From an uncultured Anaerolineaceae bacterium (GTDB lineage: Bacteria; Chloroflexota; Anaerolineae; Promineifilales; Promineifilaceae), in the NCBI GenBank assembly GCA_937967805.1, contig CALBTC010000479.1:1-37018 (forward strand): DNA of 37,018 nucleotides, read 5' to 3'. How positions within the stretch are numbered: the first letter of the stretch is position 1; every line of letters begins with the position of its first letter. This document shows, piece after piece, positions 1 through 37,018 of the stretch. Position numbers and translations under genes: made by a program. The notes below the pieces were generated by a model. The model was not told the DNA's origin and searched no databases. It saw only the letters and a program-made list of their open reading frames with translations.

Positions 1-864
1 CGGGGGGTGTGTGTTGATCTTGGTGGCGGTTTCCTCATCCTCTACGTTATCGTCCACTCCTGCGGCAGGTTCGTAGTGGTATGCACCACCAACCGCACCC
101 ATTTACGCGATTATGCCGACGCTATTACGGAGAATACGGCCGCAATCCTTGTGGCTCATTACTCCAACTACAAAATCATCGGCTTCAGCAGTGAACCAAC
201 GCTGGACGAATTGGCCGAACTGGCCCATGAGCACAAGCTGCCATTGCTGTATGACCAGGGCAGCGGCGCACTGTTGGACACCGCACCTTACGGCCTGGAA
301 CCAGAACCGACCGTGCTTGATGGCCTGGCAGCCGGAGTGGATTTGGTAGCCTTTAGCGGCGATAAACTGTTGGGTGGGCCGCAGGCGGGCATTTTGGTGG
401 GACGGGAAGAATTAGTGGCCCAACTGAAGCGCCATCCGCTGGCCCGCGCCGTGCGCGCCGACAAGCTGTGCCTGGCCGGATTGTCCGCTACGCTCACCCA
501 TTACCTTACCGAAAACGCGCTCACGGAGATACCTGTCTGGCGCATGATTTCTCGACCGCTGGAGGAGATTGGCTCTGAAGCAGATACCTGGGCAGCACGC
601 TTGCAAGAGATGGGCATCAAGGCAGAGGTTGTGGACGGCCGTTCCACCGTCGGCGGCGGCAGTTTGCCCGGCACTAGCCTGCCCAGCCGGGTTGTGGCCA
701 TCAGCCACGATGACCCCGATCAGCTGGCCACCCGCCTGCGTCAAGAGAAAGTACCGGTGATTGGCCGTATTCAAGACGGCCGTTTCCTCATCGATCCGCG
801 CACCATTTTGCCGGATCAGGTTGAAATGTTACTGCAATCCCTGGTAAACTGTGCGATGGAGTAA
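1..864 (+). CDS. selA: L-seryl-tRNA(Sec) selenium transferase, 5'-truncated by window edge
   Basis: SelA is the PLP enzyme that converts seryl-tRNA(Sec) to selenocysteinyl-tRNA(Sec), so the host probably makes selenoproteins. The frame is open from base 1 and ends at TAA 862-864, giving about 287 residues of a family usually near 460; the N-terminal part lies outside. The PLP lysine is in the motif FSGDKLLGGPQAG (Lys codon 364-366), preceded by the LYDQGSGAL segment. The SelA signature CTTNRTHLRDY is present around bases 82-114. The first ~85 bases read as RG-x-x-VDLGGGFLILYVIVHSCGRF where the family has roughly RGQLVEIGGGFRIPDVM-QSGA-L, so this edge carries many unexpected substitutions and may be low-quality sequence. 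No selB or tRNA-Sec is in the window. An ATG-like start at base 7 is not the real start. Confidence 0.9.
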   Translation, partial: RGVCVDLGGGFLILYVIVHSCGRFVVVCTTNRTHLRDYADAITENTAAILVAHYSNYKIIGFSSEPTLDELAELAHEHKLPLLYDQGSGALLDTAPYGLEPEPTVLDGLAAGVDLVAFSGDKLLGGPQAGILVGREELVAQLKRHPLARAVRADKLCLAGLSATLTHYLTENALTEIPVWRMISRPLEEIGSEADTWAARLQEMGIKAEVVDGRSTVGGGSLPGTSLPSRVVAISHDDPDQLATRLRQEKVPVIGRIQDGRFLIDPRTILPDQVEMLLQSLVNCAME

Positions 865-895
865 ACATTAGAAACGTTCTTTTTAATATTTCGGA

Positions 896-960
896 CACAG
901 ATGAACACAGATTTTCACAGATGAAAAGTGTAACTGTGTTCATCTGTGAAAATCCGTGGC
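896..960. repeat. Inverted repeat of the CACAGATGAACACAG type
   Basis: A 15-bp arm at 896-910 (CACAGATGAACACAG) is exactly complementary to 934-948 (CTGTGTTCATCTGTG). A second overlapping pair (GATTTTCACAGATGA and TCATCTGTGAAAATC) uses the middle. It fills the selA-tsaD gap and forms the tsaD leader. I infer a dispersed intergenic repeat; it lacks a T-run, so it is not a typical intrinsic terminator. Confidence 0.7.
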
Positions 961-971
961 CCATTTCTTAA

Positions 972-1985
972 ATGAATACAACCAGACAAAACAGCCGTAT
1001 TCTGGCTATAGAGACATCTTGTGACGAAACGTCGGCAGCTGTGGTGGAAGACGGCCGTACCATTCTCAGCAACATCATTGCCAGCCAGGTAGATTTGCAC
1101 GCCCAGTTTGGCGGCGTCTTCCCGGAAGTGGCCTCGCGCAAACATGTGGAAGTGATTCATGCCGTGGTGCAGCAGGCGTTGGAAGAGGCCCACATGGGGC
1201 TGGACGACATTGACTGCATTGCCGTCACGCGCGGTCCCGGTTTGGTAGGATCGCTGCTGGTGGGCGTGAACATGGCCAAAGGATTGGCCCTGGCGCGCAA
1301 CAAGCCATTTTTGGGCATCAATCATATTGAAGGGCACGTTTATTCGCTCTGGCTCACCGAGCACGTAGATGAAATTGAGTTCCCCTTGCTGACGCTGGTG
1401 GTTAGCGGTGGCCACACGGAACTGTATTTGATGACCGGTCATGGCCAATACCAGCATTTGGGCGGCACGCTGGACGACGCGGCCGGGGAAGCATTTGACA
1501 AGGTAGGACGGGTGCTGGGCCTGCCTTTCCCTGGTGGACCGGCCATCGACAAGCTGGCTCCGTCGGGCAATGCGACGGCGTTTAAGTTTCCTCGTGCGGT
1601 TATGGAAGACGGCTACAATTTTAGTTTTAGCGGTCTAAAAACGGCCGTTGCCCGGCAAATTAAACATTTCAACAAAACCAAACTACCGGTAGAGGATTTG
1701 GCCGCCAGTTTTCAAACGGCCGTGGTTGAGGCCCTGGTGACTAAAACAGAACGGGCGGCAACCGCATATGGGGTAACGGCCGTGCATCTGGCCGGCGGCG
1801 TCTCGGCCAACAAGGAGCTGCGGCGTACCATGACAGAGCAGCTTTCTATACCTGTCCGGTACCCTCCTCCTATTCTCTGTACCGATAACGCCGCTATGAT
1901 AGGATCAGCAGCGCATTGGCACTATGTGAACGGCCGTCGCGATGCGCTGAATTTAGATGTCATCCCCAGCTTGCAGCTTATTTAG
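972..1985 (+). CDS. tsaD: tRNA N6-adenosine threonylcarbamoyltransferase TsaD
   Basis: TsaD (formerly Gcp/YgjD) transfers threonylcarbamoyl to A37 of ANN-decoding tRNAs, completing t6A with TsaB/TsaE partners; it acts in the cytoplasm. The 337-residue length fits the bacterial family. Seen directly: the ASKHA-fold opening ILAIETSCDETSAAVV at residues 10-25, the metal-binding His pair in NHIEGH (His118, His122), the glycine-rich SGGHTEL at 145-151, GEAFDKVGRVLGLPFPGGP at ~172-190, and CTDNAAMIG at 303-311 holding the third metal-ligand Asp. The ATG at 972 is chosen because the conserved N-terminus begins eight residues later; no clear ribosome-binding site is visible and the leader consists of an inverted repeat. 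Five ACGGCCGT octamers lie inside the gene. Confidence 0.97.
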   Translation: MNTTRQNSRILAIETSCDETSAAVVEDGRTILSNIIASQVDLHAQFGGVFPEVASRKHVEVIHAVVQQALEEAHMGLDDIDCIAVTRGPGLVGSLLVGVNMAKGLALARNKPFLGINHIEGHVYSLWLTEHVDEIEFPLLTLVVSGGHTELYLMTGHGQYQHLGGTLDDAAGEAFDKVGRVLGLPFPGGPAIDKLAPSGNATAFKFPRAVMEDGYNFSFSGLKTAVARQIKHFNKTKLPVEDLAASFQTAVVEALVTKTERAATAYGVTAVHLAGGVSANKELRRTMTEQLSIPVRYPPPILCTDNAAMIGSAAHWHYVNGRRDALNLDVIPSLQLI

Positions 1986-1994
1986 CGGCAAAAT

Positions 1995-2028
1995 TGTCGG
2001 GCAAATTTACAGGCAATTTTGCCCGACA
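1995..2028 (+). terminator. Hairpin after tsaD, possible terminator
   Basis: Arms TGTCGGGCAAA (1995-2005) and TTTGCCCGACA (2018-2028) are exact complements around a 12-base loop, starting 10 bases after the tsaD stop. There is no T-run afterwards, so termination is inferred from position only. Confidence 0.45.
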
Positions 2029-2143
2029 TCAGTAAACTATGGAAGATAAAACGGCCGTAACAACAACAGTAACATCTTCGCAATAATATAAAGCTATAAA
2101 ACCTATTACTTATGGGTTGCTAACCAATAGTAGTTATTTGGCA

Positions 2144-4279
2144 ATGTATCGTGGTATTATGATTCAAATGGATCACTCTATTCAAGACGCAGACTTCACC
2201 CCCGAGCTGAGGGATAGCGATCGGCTTCACACTTTGTATGTGGTTAACGACATGCTAAAGCAGGTAGAAGCAGATGGTCTCAACATCAACCTCATCCTTC
2301 CCCGCGTACTTAACCTCTCTGTACAACAGTTGGAAGCGCATGATGGCAGCATTATTGTCGTCAATGAAATGTTGAAGATTGAATATGCCTGGCTAACCGG
2401 TGATCAAAACCAAAATAACCATTCCGAAGAGTTTCTGGAATCTATCATGAACAGCGGGGTGGCCGGATGGGTCATCCGCAACCACGAGCCATGCATTATT
2501 CTTGATACGCAAACCGACGAGCGTTGGCTGCCTCGTCCGGGACATATTACCAGCCATAAATCCTGGTCAGTTATTTGCACGCCGTTTTCCATACGCAATC
2601 GCGTCATTGGCGCCATTACCATTCATAAAGCCGGTGTAGACCAATTTGATGAGCGCGATCTCAATCTGTTAACCGCCATTTCCAATCAGGCGGCCAGCAG
2701 CATTGAAAACGCCCGCCTCTATGAAGCTTCCCAACGCCAGCTCAAGATTTCTGCCCTGCTCAATGAAGCCAGCCGGGTCATTAACTCCTCGCTAGACATT
2801 AACGAAATTATGCAGTCACTGCTGGCGCAGATGAATGATTTCCTCAATGCAGAAGCGATTTCCATTGCCCTGGTAGACAAACAAACGAATGAGCTGGTGT
2901 ACCAGGTGGCCGAGGGCATCGGCGCCGAGGAAATTGTGGGGCTGCGGCTACCCAGCAGCCAGGGTTTGTCTGGCTGGGTGATGACAAACTCGGAGCCGGC
3001 GCTGGTGTCTGATACCAGTTTAGACCCCCGTTTTCACCACCTGGGTGACGAACGCACCGGGTATGAAACATTGGCCATGATTTGCGCCCCGATGATTTTT
3101 AAAGGGGATGCGCTGGGCACCATTCAGGCAATTAATCCCAGTGAAGGCACCTTTACCGAAGAAGATTTAGATGTGTTGGTAAATCTGGCCAATATTGCCA
3201 GTACGGCCATTGCCAACGCCCAACAGTATGCGCGTACCGTCGCCGCCGAAGCCCGTTTCATCAGCCTCTTCCAGGATACGGTTGATCCCATTATTTTGAC
3301 CGACATGCGCGGCCGTATCGTGGAAGCCAACCGCCGGGCTTCCGATATGCTGGGCTACAGCCGCAGCGAGCTGCTGTCGATGGCCATTCAAGATTTGCAC
3401 CCGGATACGGCCGTTCTGCCTAAAGCCAAACGAATCCGCTCAGACAAAGTTTTGATGTTCCAGAGTGACGTGCGCGCTAAAAACGCGCCGCCCATACCCA
3501 TGGAAGTGTACGCCAAGCGCACCATTCATGGCGACGACAACCTGCTGCAATGGATCCATCACGACATCACCGAGCAGGTAGAATTGGAGAAAATGCGCGA
3601 AGATTTAACCGCCATGCTATTCCACGACCTGCAGAGCCCACTGGGTAATGTTATTTCTAGCCTGGAGCTGCTCGCTTACGAAATCCCCCCGGAATCAGCC
3701 AATTCACCACTTTACGCCATGCTGGACATTGCCAGACGCAGCAGCCGCCGCCTGGAAACGTTGATCCGTTCCCTGCTAGACATCAATCGCCTGGAAGCGG
3801 GACAACCGATTACAGAACAAAGCCGGGTGGATATAAGCAGGCTGGTTGACGAGGTTTTTGAAATTGAACGGCCGAATTTCGAGCAGCGTCGCGTCCATTT
3901 TGCCAACACCTTACCCGACGATTTTCCTCACGTTTTTGTAGAAGAAGATATGATTCGGCGTGTCCTGGTCAACCTGGTTAACAATGCCCTCAAATACAGC
4001 AGTGAGGATCAAACCATCACGGTCTCCGGCCAGCTTCTGCCAGAAAATGACCGGCTGCTTTTATCGGTTAGCGATCAGGGCAGCGGTATCCCCAAACAGT
4101 TCCGCGAATCTATCTTCGAGAAGTTTGAGCGTATTGCCGCCAAAGACAGCGATGCCAAGGGTCTGGGGCTGGGACTGGCATTTTGCCGCCTGGCGGTTGA
4201 GGCACATAACGGCCGTATTTGGGTCGATGATGCGCCGTCTGGCGGGGCACGTTTCAACTTCACTCTACCTCTGGCATAA
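2144..4279 (+). CDS. GAF-GAF-PAS sensor histidine kinase
   Basis: A soluble-looking sensor kinase of about 711 residues with no hydrophobic membrane segment. Order (from this ATG): a first GAF domain ~45-195 and a second ~215-365, each ending in the typical NLA/ISNQAASSIENARLY-like helix, a PAS domain ~372-485 (DPIILTDMRGRIVEANRRASDMLGYS), then HisKA with the phosphoacceptor His in MLFHDLQSPLGN (His codon 3623-3625). The HATPase_c boxes follow: N box NLVNNALKYS, G1 DQGSGIP, F box FEKFERI, G2 GLGLGLAF. All catalytic motifs look intact. No response regulator is adjacent, so its partner is elsewhere. The start is uncertain: a TTG at 2117 and ATGs at 2144, 2159 and 2168 are in frame, and none has a convincing ribosome-binding site. 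The ligand of the GAF domains cannot be told. Confidence 0.93.
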   Translation: MYRGIMIQMDHSIQDADFTPELRDSDRLHTLYVVNDMLKQVEADGLNINLILPRVLNLSVQQLEAHDGSIIVVNEMLKIEYAWLTGDQNQNNHSEEFLESIMNSGVAGWVIRNHEPCIILDTQTDERWLPRPGHITSHKSWSVICTPFSIRNRVIGAITIHKAGVDQFDERDLNLLTAISNQAASSIENARLYEASQRQLKISALLNEASRVINSSLDINEIMQSLLAQMNDFLNAEAISIALVDKQTNELVYQVAEGIGAEEIVGLRLPSSQGLSGWVMTNSEPALVSDTSLDPRFHHLGDERTGYETLAMICAPMIFKGDALGTIQAINPSEGTFTEEDLDVLVNLANIASTAIANAQQYARTVAAEARFISLFQDTVDPIILTDMRGRIVEANRRASDMLGYSRSELLSMAIQDLHPDTAVLPKAKRIRSDKVLMFQSDVRAKNAPPIPMEVYAKRTIHGDDNLLQWIHHDITEQVELEKMREDLTAMLFHDLQSPLGNVISSLELLAYEIPPESANSPLYAMLDIARRSSRRLETLIRSLLDINRLEAGQPITEQSRVDISRLVDEVFEIERPNFEQRRVHFANTLPDDFPHVFVEEDMIRRVLVNLVNNALKYSSEDQTITVSGQLLPENDRLLLSVSDQGSGIPKQFRESIFEKFERIAAKDSDAKGLGLGLAFCRLAVEAHNGRIWVDDAPSGGARFNFTLPLA

Positions 4280-4421: not shown

Positions 4422-5648
4422 ATGGCAAGCAATAGGCTTTATTATCAAAATGCGTATACAACCCGGTTCGAAGCAAACGTGGTGGATCGGGTGAGGGAGA
4501 AAGAGCAAACGGCCGTTATCCTCGACCAAACTTTCTTCTATCCTACCTCCGGGGGCCAGCCATTTGATATTGGCACCATCAACAATATTCCCGTCCAGAA
4601 CGTCACCATTCGCGAGAAAGACGAGGCGATCCTGCATTGGATGGACACGACAGAGCTGTGGCAGGATAAAGTTGTGGGGCAGATTAATTGGCCGCGCCGC
4701 TTTGACCACATGCAGCAGCACACCGGCCAACATATTCTCTCCCAATCATTCATTCAAATAGCCCAGGCAGAAACGGTTGGCTTTCATCTGAGTGACAATA
4801 CGCTCACGATTGATTTGCATACCACCCAGCTTACACCCGGCCAGGTAGAAGAAGCTGAATTTTTAACCAACCAGATCATCTGGCAAAATCGTCCGGTCCA
4901 CATCCGTTTTGTCACGCCGGAACAGGCGCAAAAGCTGGCGCTGCGCAAGCTGCCTCCGGGACGCCAGGACAAGCTGCGTCTCATCGAAATTGACAAATTT
5001 GACCTCACGGCCTGTGGCGGCACCCACGTGCAGCGCACTGGCGAAGTGGGCATGATCAAAATCGTAAAGCTAGAGCGGCAAAACAATCAACTGCGCGTAG
5101 CGTTTGTCTGCGGCCAGCGCGCCTTGCACGATTACCGGCTTAAAAACAGCATCGTCAACCAGCTTTCTGCCGAACTCACTACAGGCGTCGGTGAAGTTGT
5201 GGAGAACGTGCTGCGCTTCAAGGAAGAAACGAAAGAAAACCGGCGGCAGTTGAAGAAACAGCAGGAGCAGCTGCTATACTTTGAAGCAGCTGAGCTGCTG
5301 AAAACGGGTAAAAAGGTGGGGGAAACGGCCGTTATCACCCACGTCTTCACCAGCGAGGAAAGCGATCCCGGCCAGTTGCGCATTTTGGCCAATCACCTCA
5401 CTCAAAATGGCCAGGTCGTGGCTCTGCTAGGGTTGGCTGGTGAAAAATCCCAACTGCTCTTTTGCCGCTCGCAAGATGCGCCGGGTGAGATGAACCAGCT
5501 CATCAAACCTGCCCTGCAAATTTTAGGATCAGCGGCCGGCGGCGGCACGGCCGTCATGGCCCAGGGCGGCGGACCCAGCACCGACGCCGCTCGCGTCCAG
5601 CAGGCCATCGAGAAAGCAGAACGCCTACTCATCGGCCAAATTCGCTAA
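4422..5648 (+). CDS. Alanyl-tRNA editing protein (AlaX-like with DHHA1 domain)
   Basis: A stand-alone relative of the AlaRS editing and C-terminal domains that would deacylate Ser- or Gly-tRNA(Ala). About 408 residues. An N-terminal beta-barrel carries the DQTFFYPTSGGQPFD motif. The catalytic zinc site is visible as HMQQHTGQHILSQSF (HxxxH) and TACGGTHVQRTGEVG (CxxxH). A coiled-coil stretch rich in Lys/Glu/Gln (about bases 5210-5285) is followed by a DHHA1-type C-terminal domain with a glycine-rich GSAAGGGTAVMAQGGGP. It lacks the aminoacylation domain, so it is not alaS. The ATG at 4422 is preferred over an in-frame ATG at 4359, because the family usually begins with an RLYY-type segment and the 21 extra residues look unrelated. 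The MBL-fold gene starts 13 bp downstream, suggesting one operon. Three ACGGCCGT octamers encode Thr-Ala-Val. Confidence 0.92.
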   Translation: MASNRLYYQNAYTTRFEANVVDRVREKEQTAVILDQTFFYPTSGGQPFDIGTINNIPVQNVTIREKDEAILHWMDTTELWQDKVVGQINWPRRFDHMQQHTGQHILSQSFIQIAQAETVGFHLSDNTLTIDLHTTQLTPGQVEEAEFLTNQIIWQNRPVHIRFVTPEQAQKLALRKLPPGRQDKLRLIEIDKFDLTACGGTHVQRTGEVGMIKIVKLERQNNQLRVAFVCGQRALHDYRLKNSIVNQLSAELTTGVGEVVENVLRFKEETKENRRQLKKQQEQLLYFEAAELLKTGKKVGETAVITHVFTSEESDPGQLRILANHLTQNGQVVALLGLAGEKSQLLFCRSQDAPGEMNQLIKPALQILGSAAGGGTAVMAQGGGPSTDAARVQQAIEKAERLLIGQIR

Positions 5649-5661: not shown

Positions 5662-6525
5662 ATGCAAGAAATCGCGGAAAATGTTTTTATAGCCACTGAA
5701 TATGATGGCGTTAATGTGGGTGCCGTGCGCACACGTCGGGGCATCATCGCCATAGACGTGCCCTCATACCCGCGTCAGGCACGCGACTGGGCCATGCGGC
5801 TGCACACGCTCACGCCTCGCTCGGTGCAATACACCATTCTGACCGATTATCATGGCGACCGCATTTTAAATGCCCGCTGGCTCAACGCACCTATTATCGC
5901 CCACGAAGCCACGGCCGATAAGCTGCGTAGCTACGACAAACGGTATCCACAGCAGCTGCTAGAAAGCCTGGCCAGCCGCAATCCGGAATTCGGCCGGGAG
6001 CTAAGCCAAAGCCCGGTGGAGCACGCCAGCCTGAGCTTTACTAAATTGATGCACCTGTGGAAGGGCGGCACTGAAGTTCGTCTGTTTGCCACGCCGGGAC
6101 CCACAGCGGGCAGCATTGGCGTTTATTTGCCTGACAGCGGCATGTTATTCACGGGCGACGCCGTTGTAACCGACATGCCGCCTTTGCTTGTGGAAGCAGA
6201 TACGGCCGCATGGCTGGAAACCATCAAGCAAATTCAAAATTGGCCCGATCCCATTCACCACATCATTCCCGGTCGAGGCCAACCATGCAGCCTGGAGGCA
6301 TTAACGGCCGTTGCCGATTACATACAAACCATGCGCCGGCAGCTAGAAGAACATATCAAATCACAGCGCCCCCGTGAAGAAATCCATACCTATCTTCTAG
6401 ACTTTCTAAACCGTTATCCTGACGCTTCGCTCCCCATAGATTGGCTCAAAAGACAAATAAAATCCAGTTTGGATCATGTCTATGATGAGATACAATTAAC
6501 CAACAATAACGAACAACCTGAGTAA
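5662..6525 (+). CDS. Metallo-beta-lactamase-fold protein with degenerate metal site
   Basis: A 287-residue MBL-fold protein. The fold is recognisable: the strand pairs around RTRRGIIAIDVPSYP, the LTDYHGDRILN segment where HxHxDH is expected, ATPGPTAGS where TPGHTxGS is expected, MLFTGDAVV, and HIIPGRGQP where PGHG is expected. Compared with active family members the first His is Asp62, the last His of HxHxDH is Arg67, the TPGH His is Pro147 and the PGHG His is Arg205; only His64, Asp66 and Asp166 remain. It is therefore probably not a normal binuclear metal hydrolase, and may bind something else or be a structural relative. A ribosome-binding site AGGAAG lies 5 bases before the ATG. The 13-bp gap to the AlaX-like gene suggests co-transcription. 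Confidence 0.85.
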   Translation: MQEIAENVFIATEYDGVNVGAVRTRRGIIAIDVPSYPRQARDWAMRLHTLTPRSVQYTILTDYHGDRILNARWLNAPIIAHEATADKLRSYDKRYPQQLLESLASRNPEFGRELSQSPVEHASLSFTKLMHLWKGGTEVRLFATPGPTAGSIGVYLPDSGMLFTGDAVVTDMPPLLVEADTAAWLETIKQIQNWPDPIHHIIPGRGQPCSLEALTAVADYIQTMRRQLEEHIKSQRPREEIHTYLLDFLNRYPDASLPIDWLKRQIKSSLDHVYDEIQLTNNNEQPE

Positions 6526-8972: not shown

Positions 8973-8992
8973 TTGTGTGCGTATTTTTGCCT

Positions 8993-14107: not shown

Positions 14108-14109
14108 CC

Positions 14110-14137
14110 GTAGGGGCGCAGCGCGCTGCGCCCCTAC
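14110..14137. repeat. Perfect 28-bp GC-rich palindrome between the two YYY genes
   Basis: The sequence from 14110 (GTAGGGGCGCAGCG) to 14137 (CGCTGCGCCCCTAC) is a perfect palindrome with no loop. It fills most of the 42-bp gap between the two paralogous genes, starting 2 bases after the stop codon. No T-run follows. It may be a REP-like repeat or a transcript-stabilising hairpin. Confidence 0.85.
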
Positions 14138-14149
14138 CAGGATACATTC

Positions 14150-23944: not shown

Positions 23945-23965
23945 ACGGCCGTCGGCCTAAAACCC

Positions 23966-27394: not shown

Positions 27395-27504
27395 CCGCAA
27401 GAAAGTTCAAGAAACGGCCGTCTCCCCCATCACAGCCGACACCATGTACGCCCTCATTGCCGATTTGCGTGCTTTGTGTTGAATTTCTCTGTCTTATCTA
27501 AATC

Positions 27505-30231
27505 TTACCGCATTACAACCGGCAGGTATTGGTAGAAGTAGTCGCTCAGGTACACGGCAAAAGAATCGCTGCCGGTAACGAGGACCTGATTCTGCACCGC
27601 GTTGCTGCTCTTTGGCCCTGTATCATCAGGATCAGAGGCGGTGGCCACGTTGCTGATGGTCAGGCTGCCTGTGGCCGTGGCGCTGGTGACTGCCGGCGAA
27701 TTAACTACCACGTTGGGGCAACTGTACATCTGGCCGGCCCCGGCGGCCAGCGTTTGCGGCGTGCTCAGGGAGGGCGTGCAGCCGGTGATGCCGGGCGCGC
27801 TCACCTGTACGTTGCTCAGGCTCAGGCTGCCGTGGCTGTTGGTGACGGTAATGGTGTAGGTGACCTGTTCACCACTTTTAATGACGGCGGGAACGGCCGA
27901 CACAGCCACAGCCAGCGCCAACGACGGATCAACGTCAGCCGTGCAGGTGTAGCTGGCGCTGCTGCCCGGGTTAATAATCACCCCAGTGTCCATTAGATCA
28001 CCGGCAATGCCATTGCAGACTGGATTCACCAGAGCAGAAGGGAACGTGTCCGTGACAGTGGTATTGTTGGCGGGACCACCTGTATTATTTACCCCGATCA
28101 AATACGTGAGCGTCTCCCCCGGTGCAACGCTGCTGATCGGATTGACGCTCTTGCTCACCGATAAGGCGGGATCGCCGCTGGCCTCAATTGTAAAGTTGGC
28201 GTTGGAAATGTCGAAGAAAATGTTGTCGGCGCAGCTTACCCGCACGCGGGCGCTGCTGGTAACAATGTTGGGCGCCACGACGCTGGCGCTGCCATCATTG
28301 AGGGTACTGTCTCCGTTCAGCAAATCAGTTGGATAGGTAAATCCGCCGTCGGTGGAGAGATGAATATGGACGTTGGCACAGCTAATTGGACTCTGGTCAG
28401 TATTGGCCACGTTCCAGGTAACGGTTTGGCTGGTGGTGCCCATCCAGGTCTCACTTCCATTGGGTGCCGTCACGCCAAATTGAGCGCCGGTATCAACGGC
28501 CGTTACCGTCGTCGAGTCGTAAGCTACACCGCCGGCCGGCACTTGATTATCTCGGACAGTGAGACGGAAATTCATGGTACGGGCATAACTTGGCAGCAAT
28601 TCACCGATCGTCTGCGTATTGTTCACAATGTCAGAAATCTGAGGAAACGTCCGCGAAGGGGACGAAGTTGCCGGGAAAGAACGGAAAATTGGTGCATCTC
28701 CCGATGGAAAACGAGGATCGCCTGCCGGGCCGAGATCAAATTCTTCCCAGTTATATGTGAGCGATGATTCGTTGCCTGGGTCTGTGGCCGAGCCGATGAG
28801 TACAAAGGGAGTGGTCAGCGGAATGTTGTAGCTGGCACCAGCATCTACAGTGGGGGGTGTGTTGCCCGTATTCGTCAAGGAAAGACCACAGCTACCACTT
28901 ACTTCTGCGGTTGTAGTTGTGAAGAAAACGATTTCATCAAAACTAATGCCGTGGAAATAATCATCGCTGTTACTTTGAATATTTTGCGGGCTGCAAATCC
29001 CTGCATAGCCCATAATTGTAGAACCACTTCCCGGTTCATATGCCGTTAAAGCGTTGTACTGATTGTTTGCACCACAGGCATTGGCATTGCCGTTAAACGT
29101 ATGGTTGCCTGAAAATTGATGGCCCATTTCATGCGCCACATAATCAACATAGAATGGATCGCCTTCAGGTTCGGGCAAGCCGGTCACGCCCTGAGCTTTG
29201 GATGAAGGGCTACAAACCACACCCAGCCCGGCAATGCCACCGCCGCCGGTGCTAAAAACATGGCCTACATCGTAATTGGCCGGGCCGATAACAGCGTCCA
29301 GGTTCGATTGGTTTTGACTCAACATGGCAAAGCCATCGTTGTTGGTATAGGGATCATTCTCCTCATCGATGTAAATAACAAGATCATTATTGGCAACAAG
29401 CTGAAAGGAAACGGCGACTTCTCGTTCATAAATGCCGGCAACACGATTGATGGCGGTCGTGATTTCGGCCATTGCATCATTAACAGTGCCACCATGATAC
29501 TGCGTGTACTCGCCGGTGGCGGCGACGGCCAAACGGTAGGTGCGCAGCATGCCGCCGGAGCTGATAGCGCCGGTAATCGCTTCCGGCTTTTCGGCCGTTT
29601 CGTCTTCATGCTCGACGACCACGTCCGGTTCAAAATCAGCAGGCAGGTTGGGGATGAAATCGTTGGCATAGTAACTTTGGTACATGTCTATACCGGCGGC
29701 GCTGTATGGATCGATGAAAACACGGCCGTTTACCGACAAGATCATGGCGTGAAACCCTTTGGGCGTGGTGTCCAGCCGGGCATAGGCGGTGGGGTCGTCC
29801 AGGCCAATGCCGGCGTAGGTTTGAATTGCGGGGAATTTGGCGGCGAGGTCAGGGTGCATGACGGCCGTTTGGGTGATTTGGAAACGGCCGTAACTCCCAT
29901 CCGGCAGCGGCAGCGAGAGAATGACCTCGCTGGTTTCCGCTTCAGCGGCGCCAACCGGTGTGCCGGACAGCAAATTGTTGAGTTTCGTCCAGTCCAGCGA
30001 AACCACCCGGTAAGCCGTGGGCACGATTACTCGCTCGCCATCCAGGCGCAGCATCGCTTCATTAACCTCCTGCCAGAGACCGTCGGCCGACTGCGCCCCT
30101 GTTTGGGCAGCGGTCACGTCTTGCTGACCGCCGGCGGCTGTCCCCAAAGCAATCAGCAATCCCAGGCCGACAACACCCAGGATAAGCCATAAATTCTTCA
30201 TTTTATTACTTGCTTGTTTTACACGATTCAT
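27505..30231 (-). CDS. Secreted reprolysin-like metallopeptidase with PKD-like and DUF11 domains
   Basis: About 908 residues. An N-terminal signal peptide (KNLWLILGVVGLGLLIALGTAAGG) is followed by a propeptide-like region and a metzincin catalytic domain, with HEMGHQFSGNHTF (bases ~29101-29139) supplying three zinc His. Position 8 of HExxHxxGxxH is Ser with Gly one place later, which also occurs in this family. Then come a PKD-like domain (PPTVDAGASYNIPLTTPFVLIGSATDP), a beta-sandwich domain, and DUF11-type repeats (VSKSVNPISSVAPGETLTYLI; VIKSGEQVTYTITVTNS). The last residues are YLPVVMR. Start chosen at the ATG at 30231, with GGAG 12 bases upstream; an alternative is 30201. Likely a cell-surface or secreted protease; substrate unknown. 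Confidence 0.87.
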   Translation of the reverse strand: MNRVKQASNKMKNLWLILGVVGLGLLIALGTAAGGQQDVTAAQTGAQSADGLWQEVNEAMLRLDGERVIVPTAYRVVSLDWTKLNNLLSGTPVGAAEAETSEVILSLPLPDGSYGRFQITQTAVMHPDLAAKFPAIQTYAGIGLDDPTAYARLDTTPKGFHAMILSVNGRVFIDPYSAAGIDMYQSYYANDFIPNLPADFEPDVVVEHEDETAEKPEAITGAISSGGMLRTYRLAVAATGEYTQYHGGTVNDAMAEITTAINRVAGIYEREVAVSFQLVANNDLVIYIDEENDPYTNNDGFAMLSQNQSNLDAVIGPANYDVGHVFSTGGGGIAGLGVVCSPSSKAQGVTGLPEPEGDPFYVDYVAHEMGHQFSGNHTFNGNANACGANNQYNALTAYEPGSGSTIMGYAGICSPQNIQSNSDDYFHGISFDEIVFFTTTTAEVSGSCGLSLTNTGNTPPTVDAGASYNIPLTTPFVLIGSATDPGNESSLTYNWEEFDLGPAGDPRFPSGDAPIFRSFPATSSPSRTFPQISDIVNNTQTIGELLPSYARTMNFRLTVRDNQVPAGGVAYDSTTVTAVDTGAQFGVTAPNGSETWMGTTSQTVTWNVANTDQSPISCANVHIHLSTDGGFTYPTDLLNGDSTLNDGSASVVAPNIVTSSARVRVSCADNIFFDISNANFTIEASGDPALSVSKSVNPISSVAPGETLTYLIGVNNTGGPANNTTVTDTFPSALVNPVCNGIAGDLMDTGVIINPGSSASYTCTADVDPSLALAVAVSAVPAVIKSGEQVTYTITVTNSHGSLSLSNVQVSAPGITGCTPSLSTPQTLAAGAGQMYSCPNVVVNSPAVTSATATGSLTISNVATASDPDDTGPKSSNAVQNQVLVTGSDSFAVYLSDYFYQYLPVVMR

Positions 30232-30270: not shown

Positions 30271-31173
30271 TTAGTCAGTAACCTGCCTGCGCTGCTGCCA
30301 GGTAACAATAATAACGCCCAGCAAAACGGCCGTTCCACCCACAAACCCCTGCACGGTTGGTGCCTCACCAAACAGCAGGTAGGACCAGATGATGGCAATC
30401 ACCGGGCTAAGCGTTAACACAATAGCATGATGACTAACCTGTAAGCGGCGCAGCGCCAGATAATATAGAGCTCGGCTGAACACAATATTCACCGTAGCCA
30501 CTAAAAGCAGCACCAGCCAGGCAGCACTGCTGGGCCGCTGCCAGCTCCCCTGCCCCGCCATAAAGAGCAGTAAAAAGAATGTTGTGCTGCCTACGCGAAA
30601 CAAAAAGAAGTTGGCAAAATCTATCTCCTGCCCATACCGTTTCACTACGGCCGCGTGCAGCGCGTATAGAAGTGATGCAGCCAACACCAGCAGCGATCCC
30701 AGACGCAAAACATCCCCCGGCTGAAAGCTAATGACAAAAATGCCCAGCAGCGCCACACCCGCACCTGCCAGCTCAATCTGATGCAGCTTCTCGCGCAGCC
30801 AAAAGAGACCAAACGCCAGGGCAAACAGGATAGACGTTTGCGCCAGCATGGAAGCGGTACCGGCATCGACGTAACGCACGGAGGCAAAGCTTAGTGCGGT
30901 TGCCCCGGCCACCAACAGTCCAACCGCGGCAAAAAACCAGATATTGTGCCGCAGCACATCAAGCCGGACTTTGCGCTGCCAGATAAGGAAAACGGCCGTT
31001 TCCACCGTAGCAATGCCCAGGACAAAAAGCGCCGCCTGCACCGGCGGCAGGTAGTTGCGCAGCAAGCGGGCAAACACATAATGCAAGCTATCTAACAAAA
31101 GCAAAACGGTGATAACCAGGGGAACATTTCGCAGCAGTGGAAATGGCATTGCGGCATTGTTTTGTTGTATCAT
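30271..31173 (-). CDS. EamA/DMT-superfamily transporter
   Basis: About 300 residues with ten hydrophobic helices in two repeated halves, the EamA (drug/metabolite transporter) layout. First-half landmark: ALSFASVRYVDAGTASMLAQTSILFALAFGLFWLREKL. Second-half counterpart: LSPVIAIIWSYLLFGEAPTVQGFVGGTAVLLGVIIV. These are the conserved GxxxAxxxxxxxP- and E-containing ends of the helix pairs. Substrate is unknown. The ATG at 31173 is chosen because the 36 residues before it (from 31281) lack membrane character. Its stop is 39 bp from the start of the metalloprotease gene on the same strand, so the two may be co-transcribed. Confidence 0.88.
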   Translation of the reverse strand: MIQQNNAAMPFPLLRNVPLVITVLLLLDSLHYVFARLLRNYLPPVQAALFVLGIATVETAVFLIWQRKVRLDVLRHNIWFFAAVGLLVAGATALSFASVRYVDAGTASMLAQTSILFALAFGLFWLREKLHQIELAGAGVALLGIFVISFQPGDVLRLGSLLVLAASLLYALHAAVVKRYGQEIDFANFFLFRVGSTTFFLLLFMAGQGSWQRPSSAAWLVLLLVATVNIVFSRALYYLALRRLQVSHHAIVLTLSPVIAIIWSYLLFGEAPTVQGFVGGTAVLLGVIIVTWQQRRQVTD

Positions 31174-31304
31174 TGCCGAGACAGTGTAGCGGCTGGCTGA
31201 ACGGCCGTCAACCAACAAAATATTACTAGCGCCTGGTTGTCGGTCGGTGGTTATTTTGACCCACAACGAGCAAGCGGCCACTGGCCATTGGGAGAAAAAC
31301 GAAC

Positions 31305-32096
31305 ATGATGAATTGGCAACCAGACATGCTGCGGGGGCAAACGGCCGTTATCACCGGCGTGAGCCGCAAAATTGGCATTGGCGCAGCAATCGCCCGGGCT
31401 TTGGCGGAAGTGGGCTGTAACCTATTCACCACTTATTTTCGGCCGTACGATGCCAACATGCCCTGGGCCAGCCACGAAAATGAGGCGCTGGAAATTGTTG
31501 AAGAATTGCAAAAATTGGGGGTGGACGCTGCCGGTTTTGAGCTGGATTTAAGCCGGCCCACTGCCCCGGCCGAGTTATTTGCCGTGGTGCAAGAACGGTT
31601 TGGTGCGGCCAACATTTTGGTCAACAATGCGGCCTACTCCACCAGCGAAAACATCGATCAGCTCACGGCGCAATCGTTAGACAACCACTACGCGGTTAAC
31701 ATGCGTGGAATGGCACTGCTGTGCCGGCAGTTTGTGCAGCAGTTTGGTGAGGGCGAGCGGGTGGCAAACGGCCGGATCATCAACATCAGCTCCGGGCAAG
31801 GCTATGGCCCGATGCCGGAGGAGCTGGCTTACGCCGCCAGCAAGGGGGCGGTCGAGGCGTTCAGCCTCAGCCTTAGCGCCGAACTGGCCAGCCGGGGCAT
31901 TACCGTCAATGCGATTGACCCCGGCATCACCGACACCGGCTGGATTACCGACGATTTGCGGCAAACCGTTGTGGCCCGGGCGCCTATGGGCCGCATCGGC
32001 ACGCCGGAAGATGCCGCCCGGCTGGTGCGTTTCCTGGCTTCACCGGAAGCCGGCTGGATTACCGGCCAGCTTATTCGCTCGCGCGGGGGTCTATAA
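31305..32096 (+). CDS. Short-chain dehydrogenase/reductase
   Basis: 263 residues. The cofactor loop reads ITGVSRKIGIGAAIAR, a longer glycine-rich loop than in FabG proper, and a cofactor-side Arg/Asn pattern (TTYFRPYD) follows strand 2. Asn-Asn-Ala is in ILVNNAAYS, the catalytic Ser in INISSGQGYG, and Tyr-x-x-x-Lys in YAASKGAVEAF. The C-terminal IDPGITDTGWI resembles 3-oxoacyl-ACP-reductase-like SDRs. The substrate is unknown. A GGGAG ribosome-binding site lies 10 bases before ATGATG, so the start is either 31305 or 31308. It diverges from the EamA gene and its 3' end overlaps the VOC gene on the other strand by 26 bases. Confidence 0.92.
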   Translation: MMNWQPDMLRGQTAVITGVSRKIGIGAAIARALAEVGCNLFTTYFRPYDANMPWASHENEALEIVEELQKLGVDAAGFELDLSRPTAPAELFAVVQERFGAANILVNNAAYSTSENIDQLTAQSLDNHYAVNMRGMALLCRQFVQQFGEGERVANGRIINISSGQGYGPMPEELAYAASKGAVEAFSLSLSAELASRGITVNAIDPGITDTGWITDDLRQTVVARAPMGRIGTPEDAARLVRFLASPEAGWITGQLIRSRGGL

Positions 32097-33270: not shown

Positions 33271-36200
33271 ATGCTTCCAAAGTTTCAGACACGTCCAGTT
33301 TGGGCTGTAACGGCCGTATTCCTGCTCGCTCTAATTCTATTCAGCATCCGGCCACAATCAGCCTCGGCCGACAATGCTCTCGTTCGTCTCAACGGCATCA
33401 TGGCCGGGCTAAACGGCGACTCCCAGGTGCAGTACGTCGTGCTGGAGGTTGCCAACAACGACCAGCTAGAATGGGGCCCACAGCCAGAAGACCCACCCGG
33501 CGCTCCAGGGCGCACGATGCTCGTTTTTTACAATGCACTGGGTACCCAAACCGGCCGTTTCGTTTTTCCCAGCGATCCCCCGGCCAATGCCACAAACGTG
33601 CTGGTAGCCACCGCCGAATTTGCCGCTTTGCCCGGTGCTCCCACGCCGGACTTCATCATGCCTGCGGAAATGGTGCCGGTCGCCGGGAAGGTTGCCTTCC
33701 AGAACAATCCCGACAACCCGAACGCCAGTCCGGTGAATGTGGCCCTGAGTTACGGGGGAGCAACCTTTACCGGCAGCACTGCCGGAGCTACGGACGGTCC
33801 CCATCCGGCCGAGCTGCCCATCCTCAACACCGTCAGCTTGCAGCGGGTGGGCGGCACCGGCTTTGGCACCGGCTCGCAAACGAATGCTGATTTCAGCCCA
33901 GGGCCACCTAATCCCATCAACAGCGCCAACCAGGAGTTCGCCGTCCTGCCCGCCGTCGCTTCCATCGCCGACCAGGGTGAAATTTTGTTTAAGGAAGAGA
34001 CCTTTTTGGGCAACGGCCGTACCTGCGCCTCCTGCCATCGACCGGAAAATGGCGACTTTGGCCTTTCTCCAGAGCAGGTAAACAGCCTGTTTCAGGCCAA
34101 CCCGATGGACCCACTGTTTGTGGCTGAGTACAACATCAACACGCTCGTTGTCAGCTCGGCCGCACCTTCCGGTTTTGCCCAGCCCAGCGACCTCCGCGGC
34201 GAAATCAGCGGCACAACCGGCAGCGCCACCGTGCTGGCCGGCAGCGGCAACACCTACCTGGTTTACGCCGGGGGTAATCTCTCCGGCACCATCACCGACG
34301 GTTTTGGTAACAGCGCTACCTTTGTCTCCTGGACGCCGGGCAATCTGGCCGGCCCTAACCCGGTCAACGGCAGCGCCAACGGTCTGGAAAATTTCACCAT
34401 GTTGCACGGTCCCTCCACAAACACAGATGGCTTTCCCCTGGGACGCGCCCTCATCCTGGAAAACATCGACGGCTTCGATCAACCGGAAGTATTCCGGGCA
34501 TCGCCACCATTGTTCAACGTGGCTGAGACAGCGCCGTATGGCTTCAGCTCAGAAATTCCCACCCTGGCCGAGTTTTCGCAAGGGGCCGTTGTGCAACACG
34601 CCACACGCAGCTTGAACCGCATACCCTGGGTCGATTTTCGTCCACCGACACAGGATGAATTGGCCGCTTTGGAGGCGTTTCAAAATAATATCCGCATCCC
34701 GGCTGACGGTAATTACGATCTGGATCGCTTTACCATTTCTGACCAGCAAATCCAGGGTAGAGACCTGTTTTTCAGCAACGAAATCCAGTGCTCCCGGTGT
34801 CACTCTGGCCCGGTTCTGGCCACCACCGATGGCACCATTCCCGGCATTGCCGAGGGCGTTAACGCCAGGTTCAACACCGGCACCGATGAAGTGACCTTTA
34901 ACGATCCGGACGGCGTGCCCAACGAACCCCCCAGCTCCGCGCCAGGACCGAGCACCCGAACATACAGTACGCCAGGTCTGTTTGGCACAGCTCTCACCGC
35001 ACCGTTTTTCCACAATCACGGTCGAGCAACGCTTTTGTTTGCCGTTCAATTCTATCGCGTACCGGAATTTGTGGACTCTCCTTCTTTTGACATTACCGGC
35101 TTTGTGCCCATCGGGGCAACCTCCGGCAACGACGTGCCCGTAGTGGCTTTTCTGGAAGCGCTGATTGAGCCGCCAACGGTCTGCGCCAGCGGCTGCGACT
35201 TCCCCAATTTACCTACGGCCCTGGCCAATGTCCCTGATGGCACGTCGCTTACTCTCAGTGGCGTTCACAATGTTTCCACCACCCTGCAACCAACACAATC
35301 GGTCGTATTGTATGGTGGGGATGAAGCGGTCATCAACTGGACCGGCGGGGCAAACGACAGCCTGATTGAAGCCGGTAACAGTAATCTAACCGTCATGAAT
35401 CTAACGTTGAACTGCGCCCAAAGTTGTGGCACGGCCACGGCCGTTCGCAGCACGGGCAGCGGCCAACTACTCATCAAAAACAACAATATCAATGGCTTTG
35501 CTACGGCCGTCCAATCTGACGGCACAGGCGAAGTGACGGTTAAGGGCAATACGCTGTCCAACAACACCAATCCATTCGAGCAATCGGCCGGAACGCTGGA
35601 AGCATATGCCAACAATGTAAGCGGCTTCAACACCGCTTTTAGCAGCAGCAGCGGCACGGCCAATCTCAACAACAATTTTTGGGGCACAGCGCTGGGCAAC
35701 GCACCCGCAGGCCTGCCCCAGGCCGCCTGGGACACTCGCCTGGCAGCGGAAGTCGTAACGTGGACAGACACGTCCAGCCGCATCGGTCGCGCCAAGCTGG
35801 GTGATGCCGAACTGGAAAGCAGCGATGACAGCGGAACGGCCGTTTTGGTGAGTTACGGCCGTTCCCCGGCCAACGCCCCGTTCAGTGAACCACTCACCGG
35901 CGGAGCGCTCTGCTCTGACTACTACGAGCTGTTTGCTCGAGGTGCTATCACGGCTGGTGCTACCTGGACCCTCAACATTCCCGTAGATAACAACGCCGCC
36001 TGCAATGCTGACGTTTTGGCCCAGCAAGCGCTGCGGCAAGTTGGCAATCCCGCCGACTGCACCGGCACGGGCAATCCCGCCTGCTGGGCCGCTGCCGCCG
36101 ACGTCACAACCAGCGGCCAGACGCTGCAAATAAGCGGCCTGACCACAACAGCACTGACGCGCGGCACTTTTGCCGCTGACGTCAGCAGCAGCGGCCAGCC

Positions 36201-37018
36201 AACACCGACGCCTGAACCGACAAACACGCCGACGGCAACGGCCGTACCACCCACACCTACCAATACACCGATACCGACCGACACTCCCACTGTTGGCCCC
36301 AGTCCCACACCAACGGCAACGGACACCCCAACAGCGACTGCAACCTCAACGCCGACGCCAGTTCCCACAAATACGCCTTTACCGACGGACACACCAACAC
36401 CTGTTTCCAACTTCGTCTTTAATCCAGAAGCAGATGCGGTGATTCTCAGCAATCGGCCGGAAAATAACCTGGGATTATCTACGCAGCTCAGTACCGATGC
36501 CGCCCCAGAAATCAACTCGCTGCTGCGCTTTAATGTACAGGATATTAGCGGCACCATCACAGACGCCACGCTGCGGCTCTTTATTCAAACGGATTCCACC
36601 ATTGGTTTTGACGTGTTTGAAGTGGCGGATAACAGTTGGGGGGAAACTTCTGTGACATTCGACACTGCACCCACGATCGGCAGCTTCATTAACAGCTCCG
36701 GCGCTACCATTGCAGGCAATGTCATCGAAATTGATATTACCAATGCCGTCTTGGGCAACGGTCAGGTGAGTTTTGCCCTAACCAGTGCAGACAGCAATCG
36801 AATTTTGATGAGCAGCCGTGAAGGGGCAAATCCGCCGGAGCTGGTTATCAATGTGGCGCTTGGCCCAACAGCAACGCCCACCATCACGCCAGTCCCGCCG
36901 ACGGCTACGAGCACACCAACAGCTACCAATACACCGCTGCCACCAACCGCAACAAATACGCCTACGGTCGGCCCCAGCCCCACACCGACCAATACGGCCA
37001 CAGCAACACCCATTCCGC
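33271..37018 (+). CDS. Large secreted dihaem cytochrome (CCP/MauG-like) with beta-helix and CBM96-like domains, 3' end outside window
   Basis: The frame is open from ATG 33271 (ribosome-binding site AGGAGGGG, 6 bases upstream) to the window end: at least 1249 codons with no stop, read codon by codon. A signal peptide ([17 protein letters not shown]) leads. Two haem-binding motifs, CASCH (Cys252) and CSRCH (Cys507), and the segment [20 protein letters not shown] match the cytochrome-c-peroxidase/MauG type. ~630-960 includes a beta-helix-like run ([38 protein letters not shown]). A Thr/Pro-rich linker (~977-1045) precedes a DNRLRE/CBM96-like domain (~1048-1195, [31 protein letters not shown]). 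A second Thr/Pro linker runs off the edge. Probably an exported redox protein displayed at the cell surface; oxidant and partner are unknown. Confidence 0.88.

What the first reader, a model, noticed from the sequence alone, without database searches (positions are those of the whole stretch)
1..37018. ACGGCCGT is a highly iterated palindrome, a HIP1-like signal
By hand count the octamer ACGGCCGT occurs about 65 times in 37 kb (examples near 635, 1050, 1638, 4207, 5329, 9031, 12910, 15819, 19617, 24517, 28497, 30990, 35836). A random 8-mer at uniform base use is expected about 0.6 times. The near variants GCGGCCGT, TCGGCCGT and CCGGCCGT together appear fewer than 20 times, so the outer A/T matters and plain GC content does not explain it. 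Most copies are inside genes, commonly read ACG GCC GTN (Thr-Ala-Val) and otherwise as Asn/Asp-Gly-Arg, so the motif shapes protein sequence. Established parallel: HIP1 (GCGATCGC) in cyanobacteria. The motif contains CGGCCG and GGCC, so a solitary methyltransferase, a repair or uptake signal, or a segregation site are candidate roles (inference).
Basis: partly seen in the sequence, partly recalled or inferred. Interest (0 to 1): 0.88.

Follow-up and report, generated by a model that had tools for sequence, protein, structure and literature searches.

The report
Genome-saturating palindrome in Chloroflexota bacteria
A group of uncultured Chloroflexota bacteria, and at least one phage with the same pattern, carry the eight-letter DNA palindrome ACGGCCGT at most of the places their proteins allow, thousands of times per genome, while sister lineages use the same core with other outer letters; it resembles the unexplained HIP1 palindrome of cyanobacteria and offers natural variants with which to test it.

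Summary
ACGGCCGT occurs 66 times in the window (0.68 expected) and 2,887-15,176 times in 28 of 56 genomes of its order; 279 class genomes outside the order hold at most 430. It is conserved as an exact 8-bp block: main-frame third codon positions are 94-95% conserved inside, 58-67% just outside. In A-type loci 1487 of 1677 positions that proteins permit are filled, and 831 of 865 Thr-Ala-Val tripeptides are written with it (114 expected). The core CGGCCG is shared; the outer pair is A..T in 28 genomes, T..A in two, G..C in one, unfixed in six, and one genome uses TGCCGGCA. A tailed phage record holds 227 copies in 65.5 kb. An orphan methyltransferase is not supported but not excluded: no C5, N4 or D12 family searched tracks the motif. 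Best reading: a HIP system with a new core, kept by a sequence-directed DNA-level process whose protein is unknown. New variant of a known kind; no report found in the papers searched.

The parts
635..642 (.). ACGGCCGT copy 1
776..783 (.). ACGGCCGT copy 2
1051..1058 (.). ACGGCCGT copy 3
1641..1648 (.). ACGGCCGT copy 4
1716..1723 (.). ACGGCCGT copy 5
1776..1783 (.). ACGGCCGT copy 6
1930..1937 (.). ACGGCCGT copy 7
2051..2058 (.). ACGGCCGT copy 8 (outside the 18 ORFs)
3407..3414 (.). ACGGCCGT copy 9
4209..4216 (.). ACGGCCGT copy 10
4509..4516 (.). ACGGCCGT copy 11
5325..5332 (.). ACGGCCGT copy 12
5547..5554 (.). ACGGCCGT copy 13
6304..6311 (.). ACGGCCGT copy 14
8081..8088 (.). ACGGCCGT copy 15
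9035..9042 (.). ACGGCCGT copy 16
9076..9083 (.). ACGGCCGT copy 17
9542..9549 (.). ACGGCCGT copy 18
10667..10674 (.). ACGGCCGT copy 19
10826..10833 (.). ACGGCCGT copy 20
10950..10957 (.). ACGGCCGT copy 21
11969..11976 (.). ACGGCCGT copy 22
12389..12396 (.). ACGGCCGT copy 23
12864..12871 (.). ACGGCCGT copy 24
12911..12918 (.). ACGGCCGT copy 25
13433..13440 (.). ACGGCCGT copy 26
14213..14220 (.). ACGGCCGT copy 27
15653..15660 (.). ACGGCCGT copy 28
15818..15825 (.). ACGGCCGT copy 29
16764..16771 (.). ACGGCCGT copy 30
17311..17318 (.). ACGGCCGT copy 31
17617..17624 (.). ACGGCCGT copy 32
18166..18173 (.). ACGGCCGT copy 33
18580..18587 (.). ACGGCCGT copy 34
18625..18632 (.). ACGGCCGT copy 35
19166..19173 (.). 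ACGGCCGT copy 36
19576..19583 (.). ACGGCCGT copy 37
19619..19626 (.). ACGGCCGT copy 38
19815..19822 (.). ACGGCCGT copy 39
21170..21177 (.). ACGGCCGT copy 40
21509..21516 (.). ACGGCCGT copy 41
22107..22114 (.). ACGGCCGT copy 42
23148..23155 (.). ACGGCCGT copy 43
23418..23425 (.). ACGGCCGT copy 44
23879..23886 (.). ACGGCCGT copy 45
23945..23952 (.). ACGGCCGT copy 46 (outside the 18 ORFs)
24347..24354 (.). ACGGCCGT copy 47
24518..24525 (.). ACGGCCGT copy 48
25589..25596 (.). ACGGCCGT copy 49
25889..25896 (.). ACGGCCGT copy 50
27414..27421 (.). ACGGCCGT copy 51 (outside the 18 ORFs)
28496..28503 (.). ACGGCCGT copy 52
29722..29729 (.). ACGGCCGT copy 53
29861..29868 (.). ACGGCCGT copy 54
29884..29891 (.). 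ACGGCCGT copy 55
30326..30333 (.). ACGGCCGT copy 56
30992..30999 (.). ACGGCCGT copy 57
31201..31208 (.). ACGGCCGT copy 58
31341..31348 (.). ACGGCCGT copy 59
33310..33317 (.). ACGGCCGT copy 60 (not assigned to a gene)
34013..34020 (.). ACGGCCGT copy 61 (not assigned to a gene)
35437..35444 (.). ACGGCCGT copy 62 (not assigned to a gene)
35503..35510 (.). ACGGCCGT copy 63 (not assigned to a gene)
35836..35843 (.). ACGGCCGT copy 64 (not assigned to a gene)
35855..35862 (.). ACGGCCGT copy 65 (not assigned to a gene)
36238..36245 (.). ACGGCCGT copy 66 (not assigned to a gene)
972..1985 (+). tsaD gene (PF00814), used to find relatives, for the tree and for the codon alignment

Best explanation
ACGGCCGT is the highly iterated palindrome (HIP) of an uncultured Anaerolineae order. 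Shown: the lineage holds it thousands of times per genome as an exact 8-bp unit that overrides codon choice and adds amino acids to proteins. The inner hexamer CGGCCG is enriched in nearly all sampled members of the order, and the outer pair is A..T, T..A, G..C or unfixed by lineage. In A-type genomes one correct outer base gives intermediate retention and the core with neither gives none above background. Inferred: a sequence-specific DNA-acting protein, probably a symmetric dimer, reads core plus outer base on each strand. Repair or retention of DNA is biased towards sites it recognises, so that in time most positions where the protein sequence tolerates the octamer become and stay one, on chromosomes and on mobile DNA. 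A change of that protein's specificity at the outer base would explain the T and G types, and a loss of outer reading the core-only types. Whether the bias lies in mutation and repair (a drive) or in selection for more sites is not settled; the filling of most permitted sites makes me favour drive. The protein is not identified, and no cytosine-methyltransferase family tested fits the role.
For: Genome-wide and clade-bound: 28 of 56 order genomes carry 2,887-15,176 copies; 279 class genomes outside the order hold at most 430. DNA-level maintenance: octamers intact in 1092 of 1245 comparisons, 6-GC control octamers in 38430 of 98835; main-frame third positions 0.94-0.95 inside, 0.58-0.67 just outside, background 0.67. 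Recognition unit: core within the full octamer 987/1101 intact, with one outer base 207/280, with none 82/204, controls 0.37-0.42. Filling of permitted sites: Thr-Ala-Val frame 831/865 (114.2 expected), X-Gly-Arg frame 495/566, third frame 161/246; outgroup loci 3/100, 0/102, 0/70; window 37/37, 17/21, 2/7. Proteins overridden: TAV 32.8 per 10,000 residues against 3.3-8.3 for its permutations. Outer-pair switches: TCGGCCGA 9414 in G020 and 7668 in G038, GCGGCCGC 12040 in G051, each filling its own permitted sites (203/232, 78/137, 51/84 and 120/149, 50/71, 31/45). Core-only state: CGGCCG 16.8 and 16.6 times expected with all 16 outer combinations in G021 and G056. Mobile DNA: tailed phage record 227 in 65.5 kb; in the 60 kb of it examined 61/64, 70/75 and 29/32 permitted sites are filled.
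Against: No protein was found, and there are no methylation data or experiments. Copies closer than 50 bp are rarer than random in four of five samples (18 seen, 38.8 expected over all five; G038 2 against 10.5; window 6 against 5.8), and two T-type genomes are mildly more evenly spaced than random (CV 0.80 and 0.81, P 0.008 and 0.007); a pure drive predicts neither. Inner one-off variants are only mildly below expectation (213 against 271) and C2T variants are slightly raised (68 against 45), so there is no sign of a repair that restores C from T. Fill fractions are inflated, because the motif creates some of the tripeptides counted, and are lower outside the main frame (161/246) and in T, G and TGCCGGCA types. 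Pairs share loci and are not independent. The dense mobile records were found by asking for clustered copies, so their density is biased upward.
Confidence: 0.5

Rival explanations
1. Each site is selected for a function of its own, for example chromosome organisation, recombination or repair in the manner proposed for HIP1; more sites are better, with no bias in mutation or repair.
For: Near-complete conservation and no inner decay halo fit strong site-wise selection. Close pairs are rarer than random in four of five samples and spacing is mildly even in two T-type genomes. For HIP1, maintenance by selection was inferred by others (Xu et al. 2018, known here only as cited in a passage of PMC6604393).
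Against: Most synonymously permitted positions are filled (1487 of 1677 in A-type loci). Spacing is random-like in the window and G051, and gappy in G003. A phage record and other mobile-type records carry as many copies per kb or more (selected for density).
Confidence: 0.33
2. An orphan cytosine methyltransferase recognising CGGCCG or GGCC marks the site, and methyl-directed mismatch repair (Elhai's GmeC model for cyanobacterial HIPs) ratchets sequences towards it.
For: [quoted passage not shown] it also names four HIP1-rich strains without a recognisable CGATCG enzyme). GGm4CC methylation exists in Synechocystis (PMC6560206, start of abstract and passages). Many genomes here hold some PF01555 or PF00145 enzyme.
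Against: PF00145 has no match in 14 of 28 A-type genomes and PF01555 only weak ones (best E above 1e-10) in 6 of 28; five lack both (G002, G018, G024, G025, G048). The D12 enzymes typed are Dam family (10 of 10). The Dcm-like enzyme shared by three core-only genomes and G040 is of a widespread type. Under the GmeC model a methylase of the first C predicts only GCGGCCGC, the pair of 1 of 31 genomes with a fixed outer pair; a methylase of the inner C predicts no outer pair at all. Genomes are MAGs: TsaD itself is missing or partial in 2 of 28 A-type genomes, so single absences prove little.
Confidence: 0.12
3. A DNA-uptake signal: competence machinery prefers the octamer, and biased uptake plus recombination drives it up, as for DUS and USS.
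For: Uptake bias is argued to be a molecular drive for short oligomers (PMC1939737, passages).
Against: Known uptake sequences are not palindromes and are commoner in non-coding DNA than expected; here density is 1.86 per kb coding and 1.49 per kb non-coding in the window. Competence genes were not searched.
Confidence: 0.05
4. Codon usage, base composition or an assembly artefact produces the excess.
For: None found beyond the GC-rich make-up of the motif.
Against: Codon usage predicts 114.2 of 865 Thr-Ala-Val as the octamer, 831 observed; the reversed control pattern occurs 64-403 times in G001-G006 where the octamer occurs 8,313-12,866 times; the excess recurs in many genomes, in all frames and outside ORFs.
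Confidence: 0.01

Closest known systems
HIP1 (GCGATCGC) of cyanobacteria
   Same: GC-rich palindromic octamer of the form NCGNNCGN, about 500-2500 copies per Mb, one-off variants mostly at the first and last base, and a rare outer-pair swap (TCGATCGA) (Elhai 2015, abstract and section 2.3 read). HIP1-dense records also exist among viral contigs (33 of 80 fetched loci at 1.5 per kb or more).
   Different: Core CGGCCG, not CGATCG (CGATCG is below expectation in 27 of 28 A-type samples); Chloroflexota host; outer pair A..T, T..A or G..C by lineage; core-only genomes; no cognate methyltransferase found.
Alternate HIPs of single cyanobacteria (GGCGCC, rCCGGy, GCsGC)
   Same: A different palindrome replaces the main one in a single genome, as TGCCGGCA does in G034.
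   Different: Those are reported each with a matching methyltransferase (Elhai 2015, section 2.5 read); here one class dominates half of the genomes of an order.
DNA uptake sequences (DUS, USS)
   Same: Short, very abundant, genome-wide, argued to rise by molecular drive (passages).
   Different: Those are not palindromic and favour non-coding DNA.

Membership tests
Highly iterated palindromes (HIP class) | Palindromic GC-rich octamer as top octamer, about 500-2500 per Mb | tested here: met
   Top octamer in the window; 995-2,102 per Mb in 27 of 28 A-type genomes, or 991 for G023, and 437 in G025
Highly iterated palindromes (HIP class) | Kept above the conservation of its surroundings | tested here: met
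Highly iterated palindromes (HIP class) | One-off variants deviate mainly at the first and last base | tested here: met
   A1T 5.7, A1G 3.7 and A1C 1.3 times expected; inner variants together 0.79
Highly iterated palindromes (HIP class) | Putative cognate DNA methyltransferase in the HIP genomes (Elhai 2015) | tested here: inconclusive
   No family searched is coextensive; target specificities unknown, genomes are MAGs of unstated completeness
HIP1 proper | Sequence GCGATCGC | tested here: not met
   Core is CGGCCG
DNA uptake sequence | Non-palindromic 9-10-mer, commoner in non-coding DNA | tested here: not met
   Palindrome; coding 1.86 and non-coding 1.49 per kb in the window
DNA uptake sequence | Preferred uptake by competence machinery | not testable with these tools
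   Needs an uptake assay; competence genes not searched
Restriction site | Avoided by phages and mobile DNA of the host | tested here: not met
   Phage record 227 copies in 65.5 kb; records were chosen for clustered copies, so phages that avoid it would not have been seen
Phosphorothioate (Dnd) target | dnd genes in the genomes with the motif | tested here: not met
   DndE (PF08870) in 3 of 56 genomes; other dnd and ssp genes not searched

The most novel reading that the evidence does not exclude
A protein-overriding molecular drive: some sequence-reading activity in these cells turns most tolerated positions of any resident DNA, chromosome, plasmid or phage, into one octamer, rewriting the proteome on the way (Thr-Ala-Val several-fold enriched). 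Its outer-base specificity has been swapped between lineages of one order, leaving thousands of sites of a different octamer, largely at other positions, and it needs no DNA methyltransferase of the known cytosine families. HIP1 of cyanobacteria would be another instance of the same kind of activity.
Probability: 0.37. Interest if true: 0.93.

Novelty: new variant of a known kind. Interest (0 to 1): 0.86.

Why it matters
HIP1 was described in 1995 (reference seen) and its cause and role are still debated in the papers read here. This order offers natural contrasts within one group of related genomes: the same core with three fixed outer pairs, core-only genomes, low-count genomes, a replaced core, and a phage that carries the motif. 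Comparing complete gene sets across these states could point to the protein, and the outer-pair switch makes specificity testable. It also shows that a DNA motif can dictate codon choice at most permitted sites and change protein composition, which matters for codon-usage statistics, phylogenetics and host prediction for phages.

Tried and rejected
Methyltransferase hypothesis: PF00145 (13 genomes; 56 genomes), PF01555 and PF02086 were searched. D12 proteins were treed (50 rows) and ten of them typed (ten of ten Dam family). The best PF01555 hits of 30 genomes fall into several groups (the hit lists are capped, so weaker hits were not seen as places). The PF00145 group shared by G021, G056, G057 and G040 is Dcm-like and widespread. 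None tracks the motif. Local profiles found only weak methyltransferase-like hits in the mobile pieces and none in the window. DndE: 3 of 56. Vsr-type repair was not searched as a family; the slight excess of C2T variants speaks against it.

In-situ switching of the outer pair was looked for in tsaD. At the best shared site 33 genomes have ACGGCCGT; none of the two T-type and one G-type genomes has its own octamer there, which the protein would not allow. T-type G020 keeps ACGGCCGT at that site, and so do the low-count G028 and G052. The tsaD tree has a weak backbone and a doubtful row (G055), so the order of gains and switches is not resolved; loss within the A clade (G035, G040-G047) is only suggested.

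Spacing regularity is not general. Viral scan for TCGGCCGA clusters: 6 loci, one short one with 5 copies in 2.7 kb (L298), the others at 0.77 per kb or less. Literature: the searches 'highly iterated palindrome', HIP1 with Chloroflexi and palindrom, ACGGCCGT, CGGCCG with overrepresented, iterative palindrome terms, octamer with Chloroflexi and HIP1 with selection showed no report of this motif; only open-licence PMC text was searched. That GGCC is a phosphorothioation target in some bacteria and that Dam enzymes read GATC are partly recalled.

On checking I found that the deficit of close pairs had been left out; it speaks for selection, so I lowered the best explanation from 0.55 to 0.5 and the novel reading from 0.40 to 0.37, and raised the selection rival from 0.30 to 0.33.

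Full report
Observation. ACGGCCGT occurs 66 times in 37,018 bases, where dinucleotide shuffles give 0.68. All other palindromic octamers occur 7 times or fewer. The commonest flanks are A before and T after (42 and 35 of 66), but only the 8 bases are conserved (below).

Where it comes from. The window encodes SelA, TsaD, two DUF2298 proteins and other ordinary genes. Its TsaD is 96, 94 and 90% identical to that of three Anaerolineae MAGs and 79% to three more Chloroflexota MAGs. No genome is held for the window itself. Six whole genomes of these relatives hold 8,313-12,866 copies each, seven more distant ones hold 7-50; the same pattern read backwards occurs 64-403 times in the six.

Distribution. 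In the order of G001, 56 held genomes were counted (150 were asked for). I of them A-type (2,887-15,176 copies, ACGGCCGT dominant). TCGGCCGA dominates in G020 (9,414) and G038 (7,668), where ACGGCCGT falls to 198 and 85. GCGGCCGC dominates in G051 (12,040, against 83 and 65). Six genomes (G021, G055-G059) hold raised but unfixed counts of all three; G055 leans to A (2,982 against 925 and 797), G056-G058 to T, G059 to G. G034 holds TGCCGGCA 3,665 times and ACGGCCGT 14 times (control column), and its sample has CGGCCG at 0.11 of expectation. The other 18 hold 84-646 copies of ACGGCCGT. In a class-wide draw of 298 genomes every count over 1,000 belongs to this order, and the highest among the 279 not in the order set is 430; the other octamers were not counted there.

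Core and outer pair. In samples, CGGCCG is 16.8, 16.6 and 10.4 times the base-composition expectation in G021, G056 and G059 with all 16 outer combinations, while 192 of 210 cores in G051, 193 of 235 in G038, 123 of 188 in G020, 220 of 334 in G003 and 66 of 113 in the window have the type's own outer pair. Against a first-order Markov model the core is 1.5-13 times expected in the samples of 52 of 53 order genomes (G034 is the exception; three genomes not sampled, several samples under 5 kb), and 0.62 in 35 pooled loci of more distant Chloroflexota, of which seven lie in genomes checked not to be in the order set.

Conservation. In a four-way alignment of syntenic DNA the 23 window copies are all intact in L002 (83.6% identity), 18 in L001 (85.8%, two more in gaps) and 15 in L003 (70%). 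Over 24 pairs of loci 1092 of 1245 octamers are intact, against 1016/2606 for octamers of the form NCGNNCGN and 38430/98835 for other 6-GC octamers. Among 374 copies in ORFs of 16 pairs, third codon positions inside the octamer are 0.94-0.95 conserved when A is at codon position 1, 0.97-1.00 when it is at position 2, and 0.87-0.97 for the 31 copies with A at position 3. Third positions just outside in the main frame are 0.67 and 0.58; the background is 0.666. Pairs share loci and copies, so these counts are not independent.

What is recognised. In 21 A-type pairs the core inside a full octamer is intact in 987/1101, with one correct outer base in 207/280, with neither in 82/204, like controls at 0.37-0.42. 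So in A-type genomes the unit is core plus outer base, and each strand's 7-mer seems to count by itself. In the single pair of core-only genomes the bare core is intact in 14 of 18 and control hexamers in 4 of 22 (small sample). One-off variants at inner positions sum to 213 where 271 are expected in 843 kb holding 1,573 octamers (166 against 163.5 in a comparison set with 7 octamers), so there is no cloud of decaying copies; outer one-offs are raised (A1T 200 against 35, A1G 238 against 65, A1C 73 against 55).

Filling of permitted sites. I counted positions where the protein sequence allows the octamer by synonymous codons. In the window 37 of 37, 17 of 21 and 2 of 7 are filled in the three frames. 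In 65 A-type loci (263,900 residues of ORFs) 831/865, 495/566 and 161/246 are filled, 1487 of 1677 in all; in 35 outgroup loci 3/100, 0/102 and 0/70. T-type loci fill their own octamer in 203/232, 78/137 and 51/84; the G-type in 120/149, 50/71 and 31/45; G034 fills TGCCGGCA in 5/6, 29/57 and 38/71. Codon usage elsewhere in the same genes predicts 114.2 of the 865. Thr-Ala-Val itself stands at 32.8 per 10,000 residues in A-type loci, against 3.3-8.3 for its five permutations and 3.5-6.2 in the G, T, none, weak, X, core-only and outgroup sets (8.7 in the small G055 set). So the motif also changes proteins. The fill fraction is inflated by tripeptides that the motif made, but only 34 Thr-Ala-Val not written with it remain where a background of roughly 90-165 would be expected from the other sets (my estimate).

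Spacing. Gaps look random in the window and in G051, mildly even in G020 and G038 (CV 0.80 and 0.81, P 0.008 and 0.007) and gappy in G003; copies closer than 50 bp are 18 where 38.8 are expected over the five samples. This speaks for some cost or lack of gain of close sites, against a pure drive.

Mobile DNA. A scan of viral contigs for three copies within short gaps gave 14 loci, four of them at 2.5 per kb or more. One is a tailed phage with terminase, portal and major head genes: 227 copies in 65.5 kb; in 60 kb of it 61/64, 70/75 and 29/32 permitted sites are filled. The others hold 226 in 100.4 kb, 106 in 46.2 kb and 85 in 33.5 kb; two have partition and FtsK-type genes and may be plasmids, one of them also with anti-repressor and transglycosylase genes; the third gave no clear family. 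The search favours dense records. The same scan with HIP1 gave 33 of 80 fetched loci at 1.5 per kb or more. By contrast an 8.6-kb gap in G003 holds a helicase, an Eco57I-type methylase, a GmrSD protein and a DprA-like protein, a defence-like island.

Mechanism. The phage argues against a restriction target. The core has no A, and GCGGCCGC no A or T, so an adenine methylase cannot be the common cause. PF00145 has no match in 14 of 28 A-type genomes, PF01555 only weak ones in 6, and five lack both, while TsaD is missing or partial in 2 of 28. D12 enzymes are present at E below 1e-20 in 25 of 28, but ten of ten typed belong to the Dam family, and D12 enzymes also occur in low-count genomes such as G027, G028, G035 and G052. 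A methylase outside these families, different methylases in different genomes, or one lost from single incomplete genomes is not excluded. I commit to a sequence-reading protein coupled to biased repair or retention, at 0.5; the identity of the protein and the kind of bias are inference.

Comparison. This works like HIP1 and meets the tested marks of the HIP class except the methyltransferase, which is inconclusive. Elhai (2015) reports an outer-pair variant TCGATCGA and single-genome alternates in the cyanobacteria studied (sections 2.3 and 2.5 and two of three parts of the discussion read; the strings Chloroflex and CGGCCG do not occur in it). I found no report of this motif in the searches listed.

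Noticed in passing
G034 (loci L120, L173-L178, L230): A genome of the same order has TGCCGGCA (3,665 copies) instead of the motif, and CGGCCG at 0.11 of expectation in 82 kb.
   Followed up: partly
L290 (record G064), L284, L295, L283: A tailed phage and other viral-collection records carry ACGGCCGT at 2.2-3.5 per kb, at or above chromosomal density; possibly usable as host markers.
   Followed up: partly
L322, L316, L339, L323 and others of L303-L382: Viral-collection loci with HIP1 (GCGATCGC) at up to 5.4 per kb, presumably linked to cyanobacteria; hosts not checked.
   Followed up: no
L164:5447-14438 (G003): Octamer-free 8.6-kb defence-like island: helicase, Eco57I-type methylase, GmrSD, DprA-like protein.
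   Followed up: partly
L077, L081-L083, L085, L086, L089: A PF01555 enzyme family, 70-74% identical to L077 in six other genomes (A-type and one weak), with an SPPY motif in the two sequences printed; target unknown.
   Followed up: partly
window 8975-16864: Two adjacent long proteins with DUF2298, followed by further proteins with PMT_2 domains.
   Followed up: no
G003:C48, G014:C3, G037:C413: DndE genes (phosphorothioation) in three A-type genomes.
   Followed up: no
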